From the IMG/VR virus record IMGVR_UViG_3300030390_000790, positions 1 through 28,247 of that record: 28,247 bases of DNA, one strand, 5' to 3'. The stretch comes from a virus. Below the pieces are notes generated by a model. That model did not search any database. It saw only the letters and a list, made by a program, of their open reading frames with translations, and was not told where the DNA came from. Below are positions 15,365 through 23,915 of the stretch, piece after piece (the stretch's first letter is position 1; the number at the start of each line of letters is the position of its first letter). A program made the translations under genes and the position numbers.

Positions 15365-16552
15365 CTAGTTGATGCCAACCCGACAAGCGATTTCTGGACG
15401 AATCGTCTTGAATCCGTATAAAATATCTATACGACATGGGAAGGTGTCAGCACTGATTGAGTAGTCACGAACGATTCTCATAGAGATACCGTCCATTACT
15501 TCTCTCGCAGTAAAGTCAACGCCTTCTGGCTTCACAAGGTCTGCTGTTGCAAAACAAAAAGCATCTTTGTGATAAGCCAAAGTATCAACCCAGTCAGCAC
15601 CGTTGCCGCCACCAACTTTTGATATCGCAGCGTTATCGGCAGGAACAGCACTTACGTTCTGAGTTCCACCCGTAGCAACTAAACCAGGAGAGATTGCCAA
15701 CGAAGTTGCTGACGTTCCTGAGTTTGCAGTAACAACAAAGTTCTGAAGAACTCCAGTGTCAGCTTTAGTCTCAGGATGCACACGGTTAACACCAGCAATA
15801 GTGACAATGTCACCAACTAAGAAGGTAGTTGTTCCACCGTCTACAGTCATACTTGTGCCTGACTGTGATGCACCGTTGATCAAATAGCCTGTTGTCGCTG
15901 CTGCTGTACCAGTAGTATGCGTAGGAACGAGAGTATTCTCGTAGTGATCGAAACCACTAATTCTTCCTAACATGCCTTCTTTGTACTGCTTGGCGATTTG
16001 CCCAGAGTCTTGGAAAAGACCCTTGGTGTCTGCAAGCATGTCAACAACTGACTGAGGATCGTGCATGTACTGCCGGTTGTCGTAAGGTGCAAGACCTAGC
16101 GTCAGTTCTTTCTGAGCTTTGGTGATATTTGAAAACGTGTTAGCAGAGCCGACTCCGTTTACAAAATTACTCACATCTTTTGACATGCTAAATGCGTCTG
16201 ACTCAATGTTAGAAGCAAGTACAGCCATTGCTGGCTCAATATACCGCTCCTTAAATTGGTCAATATGCAAAGACAGTTCTTCGCTTGAGAACGTGAAGTC
16301 AACACCCTTTTGCGTAGCCACTGAAAGCGTCACGCTATTTTCTGCAATGTCTTGGCTGCTTAGTGCCGCGCCAGTTCGTACAGTAAATTGGTTAGGGAGT
16401 CGGATTTTAAGATCGTTACCGATCTTCGCGCCTGACTTAGCGTATTGGTCATCATACTGCCGATTTATTGTTCCAACGAAATTCAGTTTCTGATGTAGTA
16501 CAGCCAAGGCTTCTTTGGTGATAATGCTCGGTGTGAGCAGTGAATTAGCCAT
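15365..16552 (-). CDS. Major capsid (coat) protein, P22 type with I-domain
   Basis: The 395-residue protein resembles P22 gp5 (430 residues). The amino arm (MANSLLTPSIITKEALAVLH) and the RQYDDQYAKSGAKIGNDLKI and IRLPNQFTVRTGA stretch at about 31-61 match coat proteins of this type. A beta-rich insertion at about 222-312 has FLVGDIVTIAGVNRVHPETK and LQNFVVTANSG, which corresponds to the I-domain of P22 coat that assists folding and shell assembly. The carboxy end has DILYGFKTIRPEIACRVG. It would form the icosahedral shell on the scaffold encoded just upstream. A strong terminator follows its stop, as expected for a gene whose product is needed in hundreds of copies. The assignment is well supported by sequence and neighbours. 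Confidence 0.9.
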   Translation of the reverse strand: MANSLLTPSIITKEALAVLHQKLNFVGTINRQYDDQYAKSGAKIGNDLKIRLPNQFTVRTGAALSSQDIAENSVTLSVATQKGVDFTFSSEELSLHIDQFKERYIEPAMAVLASNIESDAFSMSKDVSNFVNGVGSANTFSNITKAQKELTLGLAPYDNRQYMHDPQSVVDMLADTKGLFQDSGQIAKQYKEGMLGRISGFDHYENTLVPTHTTGTAAATTGYLINGASQSGTSMTVDGGTTTFLVGDIVTIAGVNRVHPETKADTGVLQNFVVTANSGTSATSLAISPGLVATGGTQNVSAVPADNAAISKVGGGNGADWVDTLAYHKDAFCFATADLVKPEGVDFTAREVMDGISMRIVRDYSISADTFPCRIDILYGFKTIRPEIACRVGIN

Positions 16553-17496: not shown

Positions 17497-19203
17497 CTAG
17501 ACCGGATTGTCTTCTTCGTAAAACGAGCTAGGGTTTAGCCCTGTTTCTTGACTAAGAAGTGCGGCGGCTGCTGGAATAGCAATGCCGTACTTTTTAGCTA
17601 TTGAAATTAGTCTGTCATCAAAGATAACGTAGTTATGTGACCCGCCGTCTTTGTTGCGGCTGAATCCATCTTTGTAACGAATGCCTTTGATGCCTTTTTT
17701 AGCTAAAGCGGCTGACGCTTCTGATGCGCCATCAAACCTTGAGCTTGAGTCAAATGGCGGCATATTTTCTACGCCTTGAATGTCTCGATAAATAACAGAA
17801 CCTTTCGGGTTTCTAGGCTCTTTTGGAAGCGGTACAGAAAGCCCTTCTTCTGGCCCATATAAGGCTTTTAAAAGAGCGTTATCGTATTCACTTACCTGTT
17901 CTGGAGTGGTTTTGTAGTCATAATCTTTTAAAACATTTCTAACTAATTCACTTTGTTCGGTCAGCGGAATATCGTAATCAAGGAACTCGTCAGGAGTAGC
18001 GTCTATACCTACTTCATACATATATCCTTTTTGCTTTTCTATTTTTATAGGATTGACTAAATCAAACGCTTGAACAATTGCTCTTCGAGTTCCATCATCA
18101 ATTACTGCAATGCCGTCTTCGTCATACTCATCTAAAATGTCATTATTGTTTTTGTAAAAATTTCGAGTATTGAGACGGTCAGATTGGCTGCTGCCTTCCA
18201 GCATTCCTAATGCAACTCTGTCTGCTGCATCTTCAGCAACAGAGGATTCAAAACCATTTTGCTCCAACTGTTTTTGAATTTTGTTTCTTGTCCGACTAAA
18301 TCCTGCATCACCTATTAATTTCCCGCTTTCTAAAAACTCCGCTGCTTCTGCCTCATTACGAAACGTAGGCATGTCAGTGTCTAAAAAACCGCTTTCTTTG
18401 TCGTACAATTTCCATTTATTATTTACGTCTCGACCAATCTCATAATCATCTTTTAAAGATGGATCAAAAAATTCTGTTCTCTCTTCTGAAAGATTATTTC
18501 TGTACCCTATTGCTACATCTTCATTGCCAGCAACGTATGCGCCATGCCCATAAGCCTGCGCTCCCTCGCCTGTACCCATTTTAGAGTTGTCAAAATGACC
18601 TTGTGGGAAATGCTCAATAAACTCATGGTTGTCAGGGCTATTCTGTACAACTGGATGATTTTTATAAGAGCCAAATCTATCAGTCTCAACGTAATACGTT
18701 TTCCCTGTTTCTTTGTTAACGATCATGTCTACAGGAGGAAAGTCGTGGGGTGAACCATGAAACGCTTTAATGCCTGGAACCTTTCGCACAAACGGTATCG
18801 CCATCATCACGCTTGAGCCGATCTCTCTTGCTGCGTCTTCACCAAACGTCTCTTGAATGCGCGGCACTACCGTGTTGTTTAAGTAGTTAACCGCTTCATC
18901 AACACCTAGCGCGTCCATGACCTTCATTACACCGTTGGTCAATGACTGTAGCCCTGCTTGCCCTTCCATCGTTCTAGGGTTGTAGGTCAAACTTTCAGAC
19001 ACTTCTTCTGCGCGTCTTACGCCTTCGCTGGGTAGTCCGGTCTTGTTTAGCTCTGTCATCCCTGCTGCGTAGGCTGGGATCTCTGCGAGAATGTTTGACC
19101 CTGCGGTCATTGCTGGTTCAACAACTCCTGCAAGTCGATTGCTGCCTCTGGGCATTGCTGGTGTCCGGTTCAGCCTTAAAAGATTTTCAAGCTGATTAGC
19201 CAC
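17497..19203 (-). CDS. Putative phage ADP-ribosyltransferase (ART-PolyVal type)
   Basis: The 568-residue protein has a helical amino part (about 1-145, with an AREIGSSVMMAIPFV segment) and then an ADP-ribosyltransferase-like domain. This begins at KAFHGSPHDF (146-155) and continues with MGTGEGAQAYGHGAYVAGNE (209-228). It ends near the carboxy terminus with KKGIKGIRYKDGFSR and HNYVIFDDRLISIAKKYG. Fold strands carrying His in FHGSP and Tyr in GHGAYVA match the first two motifs of the ART superfamily as found in phage polyvalent proteins. Such enzymes transfer ADP-ribose from NAD to a target. The gene lies between the portal group and scaffold, so the protein is likely virion-associated and possibly injected. 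It starts at GTG with a GTGGCTAA overlap. Enzyme activity is inferred. Confidence 0.65.
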   Translation of the reverse strand: MANQLENLLRLNRTPAMPRGSNRLAGVVEPAMTAGSNILAEIPAYAAGMTELNKTGLPSEGVRRAEEVSESLTYNPRTMEGQAGLQSLTNGVMKVMDALGVDEAVNYLNNTVVPRIQETFGEDAAREIGSSVMMAIPFVRKVPGIKAFHGSPHDFPPVDMIVNKETGKTYYVETDRFGSYKNHPVVQNSPDNHEFIEHFPQGHFDNSKMGTGEGAQAYGHGAYVAGNEDVAIGYRNNLSEERTEFFDPSLKDDYEIGRDVNNKWKLYDKESGFLDTDMPTFRNEAEAAEFLESGKLIGDAGFSRTRNKIQKQLEQNGFESSVAEDAADRVALGMLEGSSQSDRLNTRNFYKNNNDILDEYDEDGIAVIDDGTRRAIVQAFDLVNPIKIEKQKGYMYEVGIDATPDEFLDYDIPLTEQSELVRNVLKDYDYKTTPEQVSEYDNALLKALYGPEEGLSVPLPKEPRNPKGSVIYRDIQGVENMPPFDSSSRFDGASEASAALAKKGIKGIRYKDGFSRNKDGGSHNYVIFDDRLISIAKKYGIAIPAAAALLSQETGLNPSSFYEEDNPV

Positions 19204-19588
19204 GCGATGCTAAAAGACCTCTGAGCCTGTTCATCATCTCGCCGCCTTGTTGCTGACCTTGAGGCTGACCCATCTGAGCTATACGTCCCATACGGCCTTG
19301 CTGCATTCCCTGCTGCATTCCTTGGGGTTCACGGTAAGGAATAAACGTCTGCAAGCCAACCTTCGGATCTATCACGACCTGATACTTCTTTCCGTCTTTG
19401 CCCGTGACTAACTGCTGAGAGTTAGGCATCTCAGGCATTCCAGTCTGAGGCGTAGACGTAGGCAAAGCCATGTTCGGACGCTGACCCATCTGGTTTACTA
19501 GAGCTTGCGCTCCACCAGCACCAGTGCCAGGAGTCTCACGCCTAGCCATCAGCATGTTTTCGACAGGAGGTCTAGTTTGCATGTTCAT
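19196..19588 (-). CDS. Met/Gln/Gly-rich low-complexity protein (130 aa)
   Basis: The protein begins MNMQTRPPVENMLMARRETP, contains one ordered-looking segment (GKDGKKYQVVIDPKVGLQTF, about residues 63-82), and then becomes Gln/Gly/Met-rich (GMQQGMQQGRMGRIAQMGQP, then PQGQQQGGEMM) before a short RLRGLLASRG tail. It is probably disordered. Genes of this kind often lie between portal and scaffold in marine podophages and may encode capsid-internal or assembly proteins. No family was assigned. It overlaps the upstream 37-residue gene as ATGA and the ADP-ribosyltransferase gene by eight bases. Confidence 0.6.
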   Translation of the reverse strand: MNMQTRPPVENMLMARRETPGTGAGGAQALVNQMGQRPNMALPTSTPQTGMPEMPNSQQLVTGKDGKKYQVVIDPKVGLQTFIPYREPQGMQQGMQQGRMGRIAQMGQPQGQQQGGEMMNRLRGLLASRG

Positions 19589-20052: not shown

Positions 20053-20336
20053 TACCACTTCACCTTGTCTGCCCAAAATGCTCCGCTCATATTACCTTTC
20101 GCAATGTTCGCGCCGTGTCTTGCTTTAAAAGACGAGCGTTTGTTTTTCATCGCTTGGCTTTCACCCGCCTTCGGCTTGCCTGATGTATTCGCGCCTTGTT
20201 GACCAAACCTGATGGTTTTTACCTTGTCACCGCTCTTTGCAACAACAACGTGGCTTTTAGTCGGGTGACTAGGCGTTCGCTTTGGTTTGTTAAACCCCGA
20301 AACTCCTGCTCTTGATAATCGCGGATCTTTTTTCAT
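20052..20336 (-). CDS. Basic phage protein, probable DUF6321 family (94 aa)
   Basis: The protein begins MKKDPRLSRAGVSGFNKPKR and has PSHPTKSHVVVAKSGDKVK, TIRFGQQGANTSGKPKAG, SSFKARHGANIAKG and a closing AFWADKVKW. The run HPTKSH...IRFGQQG...SFKARHxxNIxKG...YWxxKVKW is highly conserved in a small phage family that I recall as DUF6321; the number was not checked. The family is often encoded beside portal genes. The biochemical role is unknown. Conserved Lys, Arg and His suggest DNA or RNA contact. It overlaps the portal stop as ATGA and the following gene as TAATG, so it is co-translated with portal. Confidence 0.8.
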   Translation of the reverse strand: MKKDPRLSRAGVSGFNKPKRTPSHPTKSHVVVAKSGDKVKTIRFGQQGANTSGKPKAGESQAMKNKRSSFKARHGANIAKGNMSGAFWADKVKW

Positions 20337-22309
20337 ACGATAGGTAATCCTACTGATTGACGTAAACGCATTTCTGCAATTTGTTTAGTTTGCAAGTCTT
20401 GCTGAGCTTCAGCTAACTTTAATTGTTCTACTGCCGCTTTGACTGTGTTCATCGTAGCTTTTGACTCACGCTCTCTTGCTTCAGCGTTTTCAGTCGCCAC
20501 CTCTGCTTGTTTTAACGCAAGCTCTAACTGTGCCGCTTGAGCCTCCAATTGCTGAGCTTGTTGAATCTGCTGACTCATGGCCGCTGCTTCTTCTTCGTTT
20601 GGCTCAATTACTCCAGCCTTCACGCCAGCACTTCGTAACCGACTGATGACCTCATCACCGCCTACCAAATCCATGTTCTTAAACAGTACGTCACCAACAA
20701 GCTCACTCATTGCTGGATTCTGCGCGACAATGTTGCTCAGTTGTTCCGCTGTCTCTTGTTTCCTCGTGGTGTAGCTTGGGCCGCTAGATACCTTGATGTC
20801 ATAGTTACCCACGGCCAGATCCATTGTCTTAACAAACTGCCCTGTCGCACCGTCCATCAAAGTCTTGTTGACCGCAACGACTTCATCACGCTCATCTTCA
20901 CCAATAATCCTGATGGTTCTTTCTGTGTCGTACACTTGAGGGATCAGGTCTATCGCAATGCGTCCAGCTTGCTCCATCGCGTCAACTAGCTGGTCTTGAT
21001 ACTCGAAGTTTGCCATCTCGCCTTGGAACTGTCTGCGGTTGATCGCTACACCAGAAGTCTCGTTGCCTTGTGCGCCAGTGTTAGCGTCAAAGACACCCGT
21101 GGCAGATTTGATATCTTCCGCTGCAAGCTGCGCGTCCTGCATTAAGCCAGGCGAACCTTGCGCGGGTGCTTCTCTAAAAGGCTTTTGTCCGTTGTCAAAG
21201 TTGAAAAACATTACTGGGTCATTGCTGACAGCCATGTTCTTCCACTTGTTTTCGTGACCTTTGACCATGTTCGGAGTAACAAAATAAGGCTGTTTAGGCG
21301 TGAGTCCAGTAACCTCTACGCTAACGCTTCTTGAATAGTTATAAAGCCTTTGAGCGTCTTTAGCTTTGCGTACCAAGCCTCTGGTCACAAACCGTCCGTT
21401 GATGTTTGAGGTCTTGCCAAATACAGGCACGATAGGAATAAACTTACCGACACACTCAACTTCTTCTAGTATCTCAACGCCTGTAATCTTGAATCTTTCG
21501 AGCTTGTGACCTTGGACTTTTCTGGTCTTGCCAAGCGTAATACCCATTTGATTCAGCTCATCACGAACTGGGTCAATTTCTTTTAGGTCTACCACTCTGC
21601 CGTCTGACAACTGCACCAGCGTATGTTCTTCATTAACAATACGAAAGTAATCAGCAACACGGACAAATTCCTCACTCAACCATGTCTCGTTGTTTCCCGT
21701 ACTGGTGAAGTCACTATTGCCAGACGATGCTTCAGCCTTTGGATACAGTCGTTCAAACTCTTTGCGCTCCATGTCTTCAAACATAAAACCGTAACGCATT
21801 TCAGCTATATTCTGCGCTTGGATGATAGGATCAAGAAGCACACTGAAAGGATTTTTGATCTCTCTTATGAGAACGTCTTGATCTAATGAAACGTCATCAA
21901 TGTAATCGTGGTCAACAAGTAAACAGCCCCAACCGCCTTTGACTGCAAACTTAAACGCTGTCTTAAACGCTTGAATGCCACGCTGGTCTATCTGCTGTAT
22001 CAGCCCTTGAAAAACCTCTGCCGTGTCTTCATCACCCTCCTCTGATGCCCTTACCTTGATGGACGGCATGTTCGCCAGTTGCCCACCAACCACTCTATCG
22101 ACTGAAGCACTCAGCTTGTCGAACGTCAGGCAAGGTCTGTTGTGACGAGACTCTCTTGCACTGTCAGTCCATTGGCCGTCATCGCTGTCAACGAATTCAA
22201 CATCTTCAACCGACAGCTCGTAAATGTCGCTCCATGAATCAGACGCAGTCTCAAAGCGGTCAAGAGCTTCTGTGATGATGTCTTCTTTTTGTTTGTCTGA
22301 TCTCTGCAT
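20333..22309 (-). CDS. Portal protein, P22 type
   Basis: This protein has 658 residues from ATG 22309 (P22 portal has 725). The amino region reads DSWSDIYELSVEDVEFVDSD and then RPCLTFDKLSASVDRVVGGQ (about residues 60-79), a signature of P22-type portals. AFKFAVKGGWGCLLVDHDYI and GKTSNINGRFVTRGLVRKAK follow. The last 90 residues are Gln/Glu/Ala-rich helix (AQAAQLELALKQAEVATENA), which would form the barrel projecting into the capsid and may act as the headful sensor. It would form the dodecameric vertex through which TerL pumps DNA. An alternative TTG start at 22315 overlaps the upstream stop, but an AGG site nine bases before ATG 22309 favours the shorter form. Confidence 0.9.
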   Translation of the reverse strand: MQRSDKQKEDIITEALDRFETASDSWSDIYELSVEDVEFVDSDDGQWTDSARESRHNRPCLTFDKLSASVDRVVGGQLANMPSIKVRASEEGDEDTAEVFQGLIQQIDQRGIQAFKTAFKFAVKGGWGCLLVDHDYIDDVSLDQDVLIREIKNPFSVLLDPIIQAQNIAEMRYGFMFEDMERKEFERLYPKAEASSGNSDFTSTGNNETWLSEEFVRVADYFRIVNEEHTLVQLSDGRVVDLKEIDPVRDELNQMGITLGKTRKVQGHKLERFKITGVEILEEVECVGKFIPIVPVFGKTSNINGRFVTRGLVRKAKDAQRLYNYSRSVSVEVTGLTPKQPYFVTPNMVKGHENKWKNMAVSNDPVMFFNFDNGQKPFREAPAQGSPGLMQDAQLAAEDIKSATGVFDANTGAQGNETSGVAINRRQFQGEMANFEYQDQLVDAMEQAGRIAIDLIPQVYDTERTIRIIGEDERDEVVAVNKTLMDGATGQFVKTMDLAVGNYDIKVSSGPSYTTRKQETAEQLSNIVAQNPAMSELVGDVLFKNMDLVGGDEVISRLRSAGVKAGVIEPNEEEAAAMSQQIQQAQQLEAQAAQLELALKQAEVATENAEARERESKATMNTVKAAVEQLKLAEAQQDLQTKQIAEMRLRQSVGLPIV

Positions 22310-22311
22310 TG

Positions 22312-22647
22312 TCAATTGCCTAATAATTGCAAATCGCCATCAAACGATTTGTGTATATTAATGTCGTAATTTCTTAATTCTGGGTGCGTCTTTCGAGTAG
22401 GCCATTGTTTTTTTGATTGTATTGCTCTTTCAATTGATTCCTCCGTACTTAATTGTTTCCCATCCCATATTTGAGGAATTAAAGTTGGTTGTCCGTTATT
22501 TAGCCTTGAATCATTTACTTGAGCAGTAAAAACAGTTTGAACTCCATTGTTGTTTTCTGCAAAAGTTCCATTTATTAAATTATTTAAATGGTGTTCCGTA
22601 ATTGAGTTATCTGACTCCTGCAACCTTTCATATAGCAAATTAGCCAT
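22312..22647 (-). CDS. Hypothetical phage protein between TerL and portal (111 aa)
   Basis: The start is placed at ATG 22647, which overlaps the TerL stop as TAATG; an ATG at 22653 would overlap more. The amino part is polar and helical (NLLYERLQESDNSITEHHL). The carboxy part has a short fold: NNGQPTLIPQIWDGKQLSTE, then ESIERAIQSKKQWP, with THPELRNYDINIHKSFDGDL at the end. The pattern of TLIPQIWDGKxLSxEESI and a following helix resembles a small domain found in phage structural proteins, where LIPTVxxGxxxSxEEAI is common. The DNA looks more AT-rich than its neighbours, hinting at a later insertion between terminase and portal. Function is not known. Confidence 0.65.
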   Translation of the reverse strand: MANLLYERLQESDNSITEHHLNNLINGTFAENNNGVQTVFTAQVNDSRLNNGQPTLIPQIWDGKQLSTEESIERAIQSKKQWPTRKTHPELRNYDINIHKSFDGDLQLLGN

Positions 22648-23915
22648 TACCACTCACTCGCAAATTCTATATCAGGACTTGATACATCGTCCTCGTAACC
22701 TTGTGCAAACATCCTGAAAGCATCGCTCCCATTTGATGCCCAGTTGTGCAGCGGGACTTTCCGAAACGTCTGGTAGCTGTCATCATATTGGTACTGGTAG
22801 TTAGCTAGAGCGTCCAGCCCTTCAGCGCAGTTCTCTTTGTGAAACCAGCAACGCTTGAACACATCTCTGACCATCGCAATGCCGTCTTCAACACTACTAA
22901 TCCGTGGCACAGTAGTTATAGGATCAACTCCCATGCCTTCTAGGATTTCTCTTCTGCTTCTGTTGTTTGAACCTAGCGTCTTAACCTCAACATCGTGAGG
23001 CAGGTAGTGAGTACCGTACAAGTAACCTTTGTCCTTCAGCACCTTGGCGTAATGATCCAGATCAACAAGTCGGTGTTCGTAGTAGTCGATAAACCTATGT
23101 TCTTTGCCGATATGCTGGTGGAACCAGATTGCTGTACTGTCTGATCTTCCAAGGTCAAAAAAGGTATTTACTGGTACAGACTCCACTGGTATCCAGCACA
23201 CTCTGCCCTCTGCTCTAGCGTCCTTGAGTTGCTTCTGGTAGATCGAGCCGTCTGAGAACTGTTTAAGTTCACCTTCGTAGACATGCAGATATTCTTCTTC
23301 GTTTGAGTTTTTTAGACTCTGCATCTCTTCAGGAAGCGTAGTTTGGCTAAAATACGGGTTGTCCCTATAGCTAACCTTCTTGACCATCGCATTTTCTGGT
23401 GGATGCTCCACAAACCTTTGGTAAGCTGGGTCACTCTTTAGCTCTGGGTTGAAGCTAATCCATATTTCTGAATTGGGCTTTCTTATGCTTGGTATCAAAG
23501 TTCGCCAAGAGTTCTCAGAAACGCGATTGCCCTCTTCTATCCAGCAATAGTCAACGCCCTCAATCGACTTTACCGACTCAATATTCTGATGCAAACCAGA
23601 GAATATGATCTGAGTGCCGTTAATACCTCGGACTTCGTTGTTTGTTACCTCGTAGAAATGACTCAAACCTAGTGCTTTGATCCTGCTGGCTAGAAGACTG
23701 TGAACAGAGTCTTTGATTGATCGTTGGATCTCTCTGGCGCAAAGGATGCGCTTTGGCTCGTTCCCTGCTCCCAGAAGTAATAACGCTGATGCGAACTGGA
23801 CTGACTTCCCTGCGCCACGGCCCCCCCAGTAAACTTTGTATCGGTGCGGTTCAAATAGTTCTTTGAACGCAGTTGGAATACTAATCGTCGGGTTCGTCGC
23901 TGAATCTAATTTCAT
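22647..23915 (-). CDS. terL: Terminase large subunit
   Basis: The 422-residue protein has a packaging ATPase domain and a nuclease domain. Walker A is GGRGAGKS (31-38). The Walker B segment is DYCWIEE (122-128), with adjacent acidic catalytic residues. WISFNPELKSDPAYQ (152-166) carries the coupling SFNP motif. The nuclease half begins at NTFFDLGRSDSTAIWF with its first metal-binding Asp, and includes HYLPHDVEVKTLGSNN. This layout is that of Terminase_3 (PBSX/SPP1-like) enzymes. It cuts concatemeric DNA and drives it into the procapsid through the portal. It overlaps TerS by 35 bases, with no clear ribosome site, so coupling is likely. Confidence 0.95.
   Translation of the reverse strand: MKLDSATNPTISIPTAFKELFEPHRYKVYWGGRGAGKSVQFASALLLLGAGNEPKRILCAREIQRSIKDSVHSLLASRIKALGLSHFYEVTNNEVRGINGTQIIFSGLHQNIESVKSIEGVDYCWIEEGNRVSENSWRTLIPSIRKPNSEIWISFNPELKSDPAYQRFVEHPPENAMVKKVSYRDNPYFSQTTLPEEMQSLKNSNEEEYLHVYEGELKQFSDGSIYQKQLKDARAEGRVCWIPVESVPVNTFFDLGRSDSTAIWFHQHIGKEHRFIDYYEHRLVDLDHYAKVLKDKGYLYGTHYLPHDVEVKTLGSNNRSRREILEGMGVDPITTVPRISSVEDGIAMVRDVFKRCWFHKENCAEGLDALANYQYQYDDSYQTFRKVPLHNWASNGSDAFRMFAQGYEDDVSSPDIEFASEW

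What the first reader, a model, noticed from the sequence alone, without database searches (positions are those of the whole stretch)
17497..19203. ADP-ribosyltransferase encoded inside the head gene cluster
An ART-PolyVal-like domain (FHGSPHDF and a GTGEGAQAYGHG motif) is encoded between the portal group and scaffold. Its place in the structural operon suggests it is packaged and delivered at infection, as T4 Alt is, where it could modify host RNA polymerase, translation factors or RNA. The insert of about 50 residues between the first and second motifs and the N-terminal helical part may serve for capsid targeting.
Basis: partly seen in the sequence, partly recalled or inferred. Interest (0 to 1): 0.55.

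Follow-up and report, generated by a model that had tools for sequence, protein, structure and literature searches.

The report
Phage head-operon ADP-ribosyltransferase with swappable cassettes
A gene among the capsid genes of an uncultured short-tailed phage encodes an enzyme of the ADP-ribosyltransferase fold; in its relatives a constant catalytic core is kept while two internal segments are exchanged wholesale between phages, which suggests a phage-delivered enzyme whose host target can be swapped.

Summary
A 568-aa ORF (17497-19203, minus strand) lies between a P22-type portal and the scaffold/coat genes. Predicted structures have the ADP-ribosyltransferase (ART) fold (VIA Z 9-10 to tankyrase, ParT and the ART-fold part of a virion protein in the solved cyanophage A4 pre-ejectosome). 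Among 316 related domains, the motif I His is present in 294, the motif II Tyr in 316, and the motif III residue is Asn in 286 (gap in 26). That H-Y-N profile falls outside the published H-Y-[EDQ] clade and outside T4 Alt (R-S-E). Head packaging of phage ARTs is already proposed in print, so that part is an instance of a known idea and is inferred here, not shown. What I did not find in print: the domain is a mosaic of three constant blocks and two variable cassettes (V1, V2) that recombine independently. The window and contig L001 share blocks at 92-95% DNA identity inside otherwise unlike phages, yet V1 is unrelated. Of 79 pairs linked in V1 only 1 is linked in V2, against 36 of 51 and 28 of 57 in control genes. 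Best reading: a head-packaged, injected ART whose cassettes set its host target; packaging, activity and target remain untested.

The parts
17497..19203 (-). ART-fold protein, 568 aa, GTG start
18772..19203 (-). N-terminal helical extension (residues 1-144)
   Evidence: model helices 25-138; clearly homologous only to the L022 N-terminus among those compared
18739..18762 (-). motif I, FHGSPHDF (residues 148-155), His149
   Evidence: His in 294 of 316 domains
18601..18738 (-). about 46-residue insert between motifs I and II (NKETGKTYYV...), approximate limits
   Evidence: spacing 63 against median 17; long spacing (51-69) in 9 of 230
18541..18576 (-). motif II start, GTGEGAQAYGHG (residues 210-221), followed by Tyr223
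   Evidence: Tyr in 316 of 316, Glu of GEG in 314 of 316
18031..18499 (-). variable cassette V1 (swapped relative to L001)
   Evidence: no DNA similarity to L001 between two blocks of 92-95% identity; V1 14% aa identity
17935..18021 (-). constant block B (MYEV...EQSELVRN, residues 395-423)
17695..17934 (-). variable cassette V2 (residues 424-503); in this copy 99% aa identical to L001
17584..17694 (-). constant block C with motif III (GIKGIRY...SR...HNYVIFDD), Asn524 in the catalytic-acid position
   Evidence: Asn in 286 of 316, gap in 26
20333..22315 (-). P22-type portal protein
   Evidence: PF16510 E 1.4e-162
19196..19588 (-). small gene whose end overlaps the ART start; relatives in L022 and L070
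16562..17443 (-). head scaffolding protein
   Evidence: phrog_8865 E 1.5e-36
15365..16552 (-). P22-type coat protein
   Evidence: PF11651 E 4e-43
22647..23915 (-). terminase large subunit
   Evidence: PF04466 E 4.1e-41

Best explanation
The gene encodes an NAD-using ADP-ribosyltransferase of an H-Y-N subfamily related to ART-PolyVal. It is made with the head proteins, most likely packaged in the capsid and injected with the DNA, and then modifies a host macromolecule, probably a protein. The constant blocks A, B and C form the NAD-binding catalytic core. Two segments looped out of that core, V1 (between the helix after motif II and the next strand) and V2 (between blocks B and C), probably touch the target. 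Phages exchange V1 and V2 as cassettes by recombination in the constant blocks and so change or protect target recognition while keeping the catalyst. Shown: ART fold (by model), motif conservation, head-operon place, mosaic structure. Inferred: catalysis, packaging, injection, role of the cassettes.
For: Fold: AF2 models; for the L059 domain VIA Z 10.0 to 9k3a_B residues 1418-1605, 9.4 to tankyrase 2 and ParT, 8.8 to PARP-1; window model Z 11.6 to 9k3a_B. 9k3a_B is the 1717-aa protein A4L_27 of Anabaena phage A-4L, in an entry titled as the phage's pre-ejectosome. Motifs: H 294, Y 316, N 286 of 316. Context: portal - ART - scaffold - coat in the window; the same kind of place in phiGT1 and L022. 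Cassettes: window and L001 share DNA only inside the ART domain, 94.8% and 92.0%, with V1 unlike. Of 136 pairs with all blocks >= 75% identical in DNA, V1 aa identity is <= 0.3 in 118, >= 0.7 in 14 and between in 4. V1-linked pairs also linked in V2: 1 of 79, against 36 of 51 and 28 of 57 in control ORFs. Precedent: the poorly conserved helical part of AcrIF11 is proposed to set its target (PMC12421852, passages).
Against: No acid at motif III, so activity could be weak, altered or absent. Foldseek alone gave no significant PDB match for either model (best E 0.76, 0.05); the fold rests on VIA Z values and motifs. No virion proteomics was readable. The N-terminal extension does not strictly follow head-gene lineage (L070). 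Cassette function is inferred from variability alone. The sequence link to the A4 virion domain is weak (hhalign probability 5.3%).
Confidence: 0.6

Rival explanations
1. Made with the late genes but not packaged: it acts in the infected cell late, for example against a defence system, in the manner of AcrIF11.
For: AcrIF11 is a phage- and plasmid-encoded ART that acts from within the cell (PMC12421852); VIA Z 5.7 between the window model and 6kyf; one of 106 members hits the NCBIfam AcrIF11 model at E 0.0018.
Against: Place between portal and scaffold; the same domain type occurs in long polyvalent phage proteins, and an ART-fold domain lies in the A4 pre-ejectosome entry.
Confidence: 0.2
2. 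A pseudo-enzyme: an ART fold kept as a structural or assembly part of the head.
For: Asn instead of Glu/Asp at motif III; PARP13 is listed as an inactive ART (PMC7955679, table passage).
Against: His and Tyr of motifs I and II are almost invariant (294 and 316 of 316), which a structural role would not need; H-Y-I, H-Y-L and H-Y-Y PARPs are listed with mono-ART activity (PMC7955679); the domain also sits in unrelated long proteins.
Confidence: 0.12
3. An NAD hydrolase or phosphorylase rather than a transferase, depleting or remodelling host NAD at infection.
For: MbcT (Z 7.4) and NatT (Z 6.3), recalled as NAD-consuming toxins, are among the structural neighbours of the window model; no catalytic acid.
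Against: Tankyrase, ParT and PARP-1 are as close or closer to the domain model; a pure NADase would not be expected to need exchangeable cassettes.
Confidence: 0.12
4. The cassettes serve evasion (of a host sensor, inhibitor or eraser) rather than target choice.
For: Wholesale replacement of V1 and V2 with the core unchanged is also what escape from recognition would give.
Against: None tested; this differs from the best explanation only in what the cassettes contact.
Confidence: 0.25
5. The cassette mosaics are assembly chimeras of metagenomes.
For: Nearly all members compared are metagenome contigs; only 3 to 4 of 50,697 phage records hold a match.
Against: The compared types recur in separate metagenomes: L012 = L088 99.9%, L026 = L095 100%, L029 = L092 100%, L001 = L007 100%; control genes from the same contigs show much less discordance.
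Confidence: 0.04

Closest known systems
ART-PolyVal (Pfam PF18760; polyvalent-protein ART of Iyer et al. 2017)
   Same: Motif I and II region aligns (hhalign probability 95% over 54 columns to an ART-PolyVal domain); 97 of 106 relatives hit PF18760 at E <= 0.01; same phage contexts
   Different: Window copy has no Pfam hit; motif III is Asn, not Asp; two long variable cassettes; where seen, the Pfam match covers the first half
T4 Alt
   Same: Phage ART encoded with virion genes; proposed delivery with the DNA
   Different: Alt is R-S-E, Alt/VIP2 clade (PMC5512222); here H-Y-N
ART-fold domain of A4L_27 in the cyanophage A4 pre-ejectosome (PDB 9k3a)
   Same: Best structural neighbour of both models; in an entry of virion-internal proteins
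   Different: Little sequence similarity; part of a 1717-aa protein among tail genes, not a separate gene next to the portal
AcrIF11
   Same: ART fold, phage and plasmid encoded, variable helical part proposed to recognise the target
   Different: Key residues reported as H-F-H-D (PMC12421852); structural Z only 5.7
Exchangeable specificity modules such as HsdS target-recognition domains and phage tail-fibre tips (HsdS recalled; fibre tips discussed in PMC10386132)
   Same: Constant functional core with recombining recognition cassettes
   Different: Unrelated proteins; here the cassettes interrupt a single catalytic fold

Membership tests
ADP-ribosyltransferase superfamily (fold) | ART fold with His and Tyr motifs | tested here: met
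   (Z 8.6-10 to PARPs, ParT and 9k3a_B for the domain of L059); H 294 and Y 316 of 316
Pfam PF18760 ART-PolyVal | Window protein scores over the curated cut-off | tested here: not met
   No match at E <= 1
Pfam PF18760 ART-PolyVal | Close relatives match the model | tested here: met
   97 of 106 at E <= 0.01, best 1.8e-8; phiGT1 relative 30.0 bits against a cut-off of 31.2
Polyvalent ART (H-Y-D) of Iyer et al. 2017 | Asp in strand 5 | tested here: not met
   Asn in 286 of 316, gap in 26, other in 4; definition read
H-Y-[EDQ] clade of ARTs | Third residue Glu, Asp or Gln | tested here: not met
   clade definition read
T4 Alt (Alt/VIP2, R-S-E) | Arg-Ser-Glu active site | tested here: not met
   His149, Tyr223, Asn524
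T4 Alt-like virion ART (function) | Protein present in the virion and injected | not testable with these tools
   Only gene order; virion mass spectrometry of phiGT1 exists (PMC10386132, Table S3) but supplements could not be read
AcrIF11 | Sequence and fold relationship | tested here: inconclusive
   1 of 106 at E 0.0018; Z 5.7

The most novel reading that the evidence does not exclude
A phage ART family with an Asn-type active site (H-Y-N) whose target specificity is encoded in two independently exchangeable cassettes inside the catalytic fold, so that phages re-target a virion-delivered ADP-ribosyltransferase by recombination, comparable to swapping HsdS specificity domains or tail-fibre tips.
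Probability: 0.45. Interest if true: 0.8.

Novelty: new variant of a known kind. Interest (0 to 1): 0.6.

Why it matters
How ARTs choose their targets is named as an unanswered question in the AcrIF11 paper (PMC12421852, passage). A natural library of 246 non-redundant core-plus-cassette domains would make it directly testable: hold the catalyst constant, swap V1 or V2, and read which host protein is labelled. It would also show that phages diversify delivered effectors by intragenic recombination and not only receptor-binding proteins.

Tried and rejected
Foldseek against PDB gave no significant match for the whole window protein or for the L059 domain; the ART assignment rests on VIA alignment, motifs and the viral library. 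The profile search of PDB sequences gave only chance matches. NCBIfam named nothing for the window. PHROG naming ('endolysin', phrog_873, 104 of 106 members) was rejected as a name: in the window protein the match is to the C-terminal part of a 1277-position profile.

I first took the N-terminal extension for a clear capsid-targeting signal because of L022; L070 contradicts a strict link. Across 139 proteins, 326 of 619 pairs with alike N-termini share a neighbour gene against 683 of 8,972 pairs without, but relatedness confounds this, and for the window that script's N-terminus ran past motif I because of the insert.

The first cassette control was unfair because the ART set had been thinned of near-duplicates and the control only of exact ones (13 of 118 against 182 of 222 and 176 of 190); I repeated it with one thinning rule for both. 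A regex count of motif III mis-assigned several members that carry inserts; I use the aligned count, which includes redundant copies. A YegP-like mini-domain in V1 (2k8e, Z 4.3) was not pursued. Papers on the cassettes: the searches listed none that I recognised as describing them; most listed papers were seen only in the listing. Absence of other folds from the VIA lists is not evidence.

Full report
What is there. The ORF at 17497-19203 (minus strand, 568 aa) is real and lies in one co-directional row of late genes: TerL, P22-type portal, two small genes, this ORF, scaffold, P22-type coat, then head-tail adaptor and head-closure genes. It starts with GTG overlapping the stop of the preceding gene by 8 nt. 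The window is part of a virus record of 31,940 bases.

Family. Pfam gives the window protein no hit at E <= 1, and PHROGs only a weak C-terminal match. One related phage protein, in Sulfitobacter phage phiGT1, hits PF18760 at E 1e-6, 30.0 bits, just under the cut-off. A scan of viral contigs with a five-sequence profile found 555 related stretches, of which 80 were returned; further scans returned 56, 39 and 80 loci (the last of 157 relatives), and bacterial genome contigs 80 of 93. In 338 sequences (337 loci and the window) a three-block search found 316 domains in 311. Of 106 aligned members 97 hit PF18760 at E <= 0.01. In cultured phages it is rare: 3 and 4 of 50,697 records.

Fold and active site. 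The AF2 model of the window protein has mean pLDDT 74.9, with the ART strands mostly near or above 90; the domain of L059, one of the shortest members, gives 85.9. VIA alignment of the L059 domain lists ART structures: 9k3a_B Z 10.0 (rmsd 3.6, 136 aligned), tankyrase 2 Z 9.4, ParT Z 9.4, PARP-1 Z 8.8. The window model gives 9k3a_B Z 11.6 (rmsd 3.6, 151 aligned), MbcT 7.4, tankyrase 2 6.8, AcrIF11 5.7. Foldseek by itself was not significant against PDB but found phage proteins named ART-PolyVal-like at E down to 4e-13 in BFVD. Across the 316 domains the motif I column is His in 294, the motif II column Tyr in 316, and the motif III column Asn in 286, gap in 26 and other in 4. The literature divides ARTs into H-H-h, H-Y-[EDQ] and R-S-E clades (PMC9503650, passages) and describes polyvalent ARTs as H-Y-D (PMC5512222, section 9). 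This family is H-Y-N. The alignment to a classical ART-PolyVal domain covers motifs I and II and did not reach motif III, so placing the Asn at the catalytic-acid position is my reading of the motif and of its strand in the model (523-527).

Packaging. In phiGT1 the relative is likewise between portal and scaffold. L022, with coat 78% and portal 60% identical to the window, keeps the same order with an ART 33% identical. Around 25 other stand-alone members, 76 of the 100 nearest ORFs were scanned (the rest, mostly opposite-strand or repeated ones, were dropped); the commonest families are terminase and portal (25 of 67 families displayed). The best structural neighbour, 9k3a_B, is protein A4L_27 of Anabaena phage A-4L over its whole length, in an entry titled as the cyanophage A4 pre-ejectosome; the paper on it (Hou et al. 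2025) was seen only as a reference and is not held. Packaging of phage ARTs near head genes is an existing proposal: about 44% of phage ARTs in that survey lie in contexts suggestive of packaging (PMC9503650, passages). So here it is inference with good precedent. Virion mass spectrometry of phiGT1 is in print (PMC10386132; sections 19 and 40 and passages read), but its table was out of reach.

Cassettes. Window and contig L001 share DNA only in the ART gene: 94.8% over 18500-18766 and 92.0% over 17554-18030; none of the other 27 window ORFs compared has a tblastn match in L001. The shared part begins at the first strand of the fold and ends in the helix after the last strand. Nucleotides 18031-18499 between them, from the end of the helix after motif II to the next conserved strand, are unrelated. 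The same pattern runs through the family. I divided 246 non-redundant domains (of 286 with clear limits) into blocks A, B, C and segments V1 (median 85 aa) and V2 (median 60 aa). Among 136 pairs with A, B and C each at least 75% identical in DNA, V1 aa identity is <= 0.3 in 118, >= 0.7 in 14 and between in 4; V2 is <= 0.3 in 75, >= 0.7 in 36 and between in 25. Median identity at fourfold sites in the blocks of these pairs is 0.77, so the blocks are recently related and slow protein evolution alone does not explain their likeness. V1 and V2 exchange independently: L012 and L026 share A+V1 and C but not V2; L012 and L029 share V2 and C but not V1; L021 and L084 share all but V1; L029/L106 and L229/L256 all but V2. 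With both sets thinned alike, 79 pairs are linked in V1 at >= 60% identity and 1 of them in V2, while control segments of neighbouring ORFs linked in the first are linked in the second in 36 of 51 and 28 of 57. Assembly error is unlikely because types recur in separate metagenomes at 99.9-100% identity. Cassettes cross from shorter to longer proteins, e.g. L014 (494-aa ORF) and L021 (1013-aa ORF).

Mechanism. I take V1 and V2 to be target-contact segments of a delivered ART. The nearest precedent is AcrIF11, whose poorly conserved helical part is proposed to recognise its target (PMC12421852, passages). Evasion of a host sensor or inhibitor is the main alternative. The Asn may favour an acceptor that needs no activation, or NAD hydrolysis; this is speculation.

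Verdict. The finding is real. The 'ART in the head cluster' part is a new member of a known kind; the H-Y-N profile and the two-cassette mosaic make it a new variant.

Noticed in passing
L031, L048, L125, L134, L155, L158, L168, L173, L174, L176, L178, L216, L217, L224, L229: About 15 members carry a further long insert between the 'SR' of block C and the NYVvFD motif, i.e. just before motif III, a third possible cassette site.
   Followed up: partly
window 18601-18738; L001, L013, L017, L029, L031, L106, L109, L269: The insert between motifs I and II recurs in several members; a similar NKKTG stretch sits after motif II in L037, so it may be a mobile mini-domain.
   Followed up: partly
window 18031-18499 and L017: Window V1 contains a short W.LYDKE.G.L stretch also in the V1 of L017; VIA gave a weak match of this part to YegP (2k8e, Z 4.3).
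   Followed up: no
L012, L070 N-terminal extensions: A shared N-terminal segment (VGDVTGLAAD.DMY.RDPESRN..NYLL.AAGA) lies in front of ARTs of phages with unlike head genes, so the N-terminus is itself exchangeable.
   Followed up: partly
Viral contigs against phages collection: The family is common in uncultured virus contigs (555 related stretches from one scan) but nearly absent from cultured phage records (3-4 of 50,697).
   Followed up: no
L005 (Tunturiibacter phage Tunturi_5) 2349-6818: One 1489-aa protein holds NUDIX, GNAT, classical ART-PolyVal domains and an H-Y-N ART side by side.
   Followed up: no
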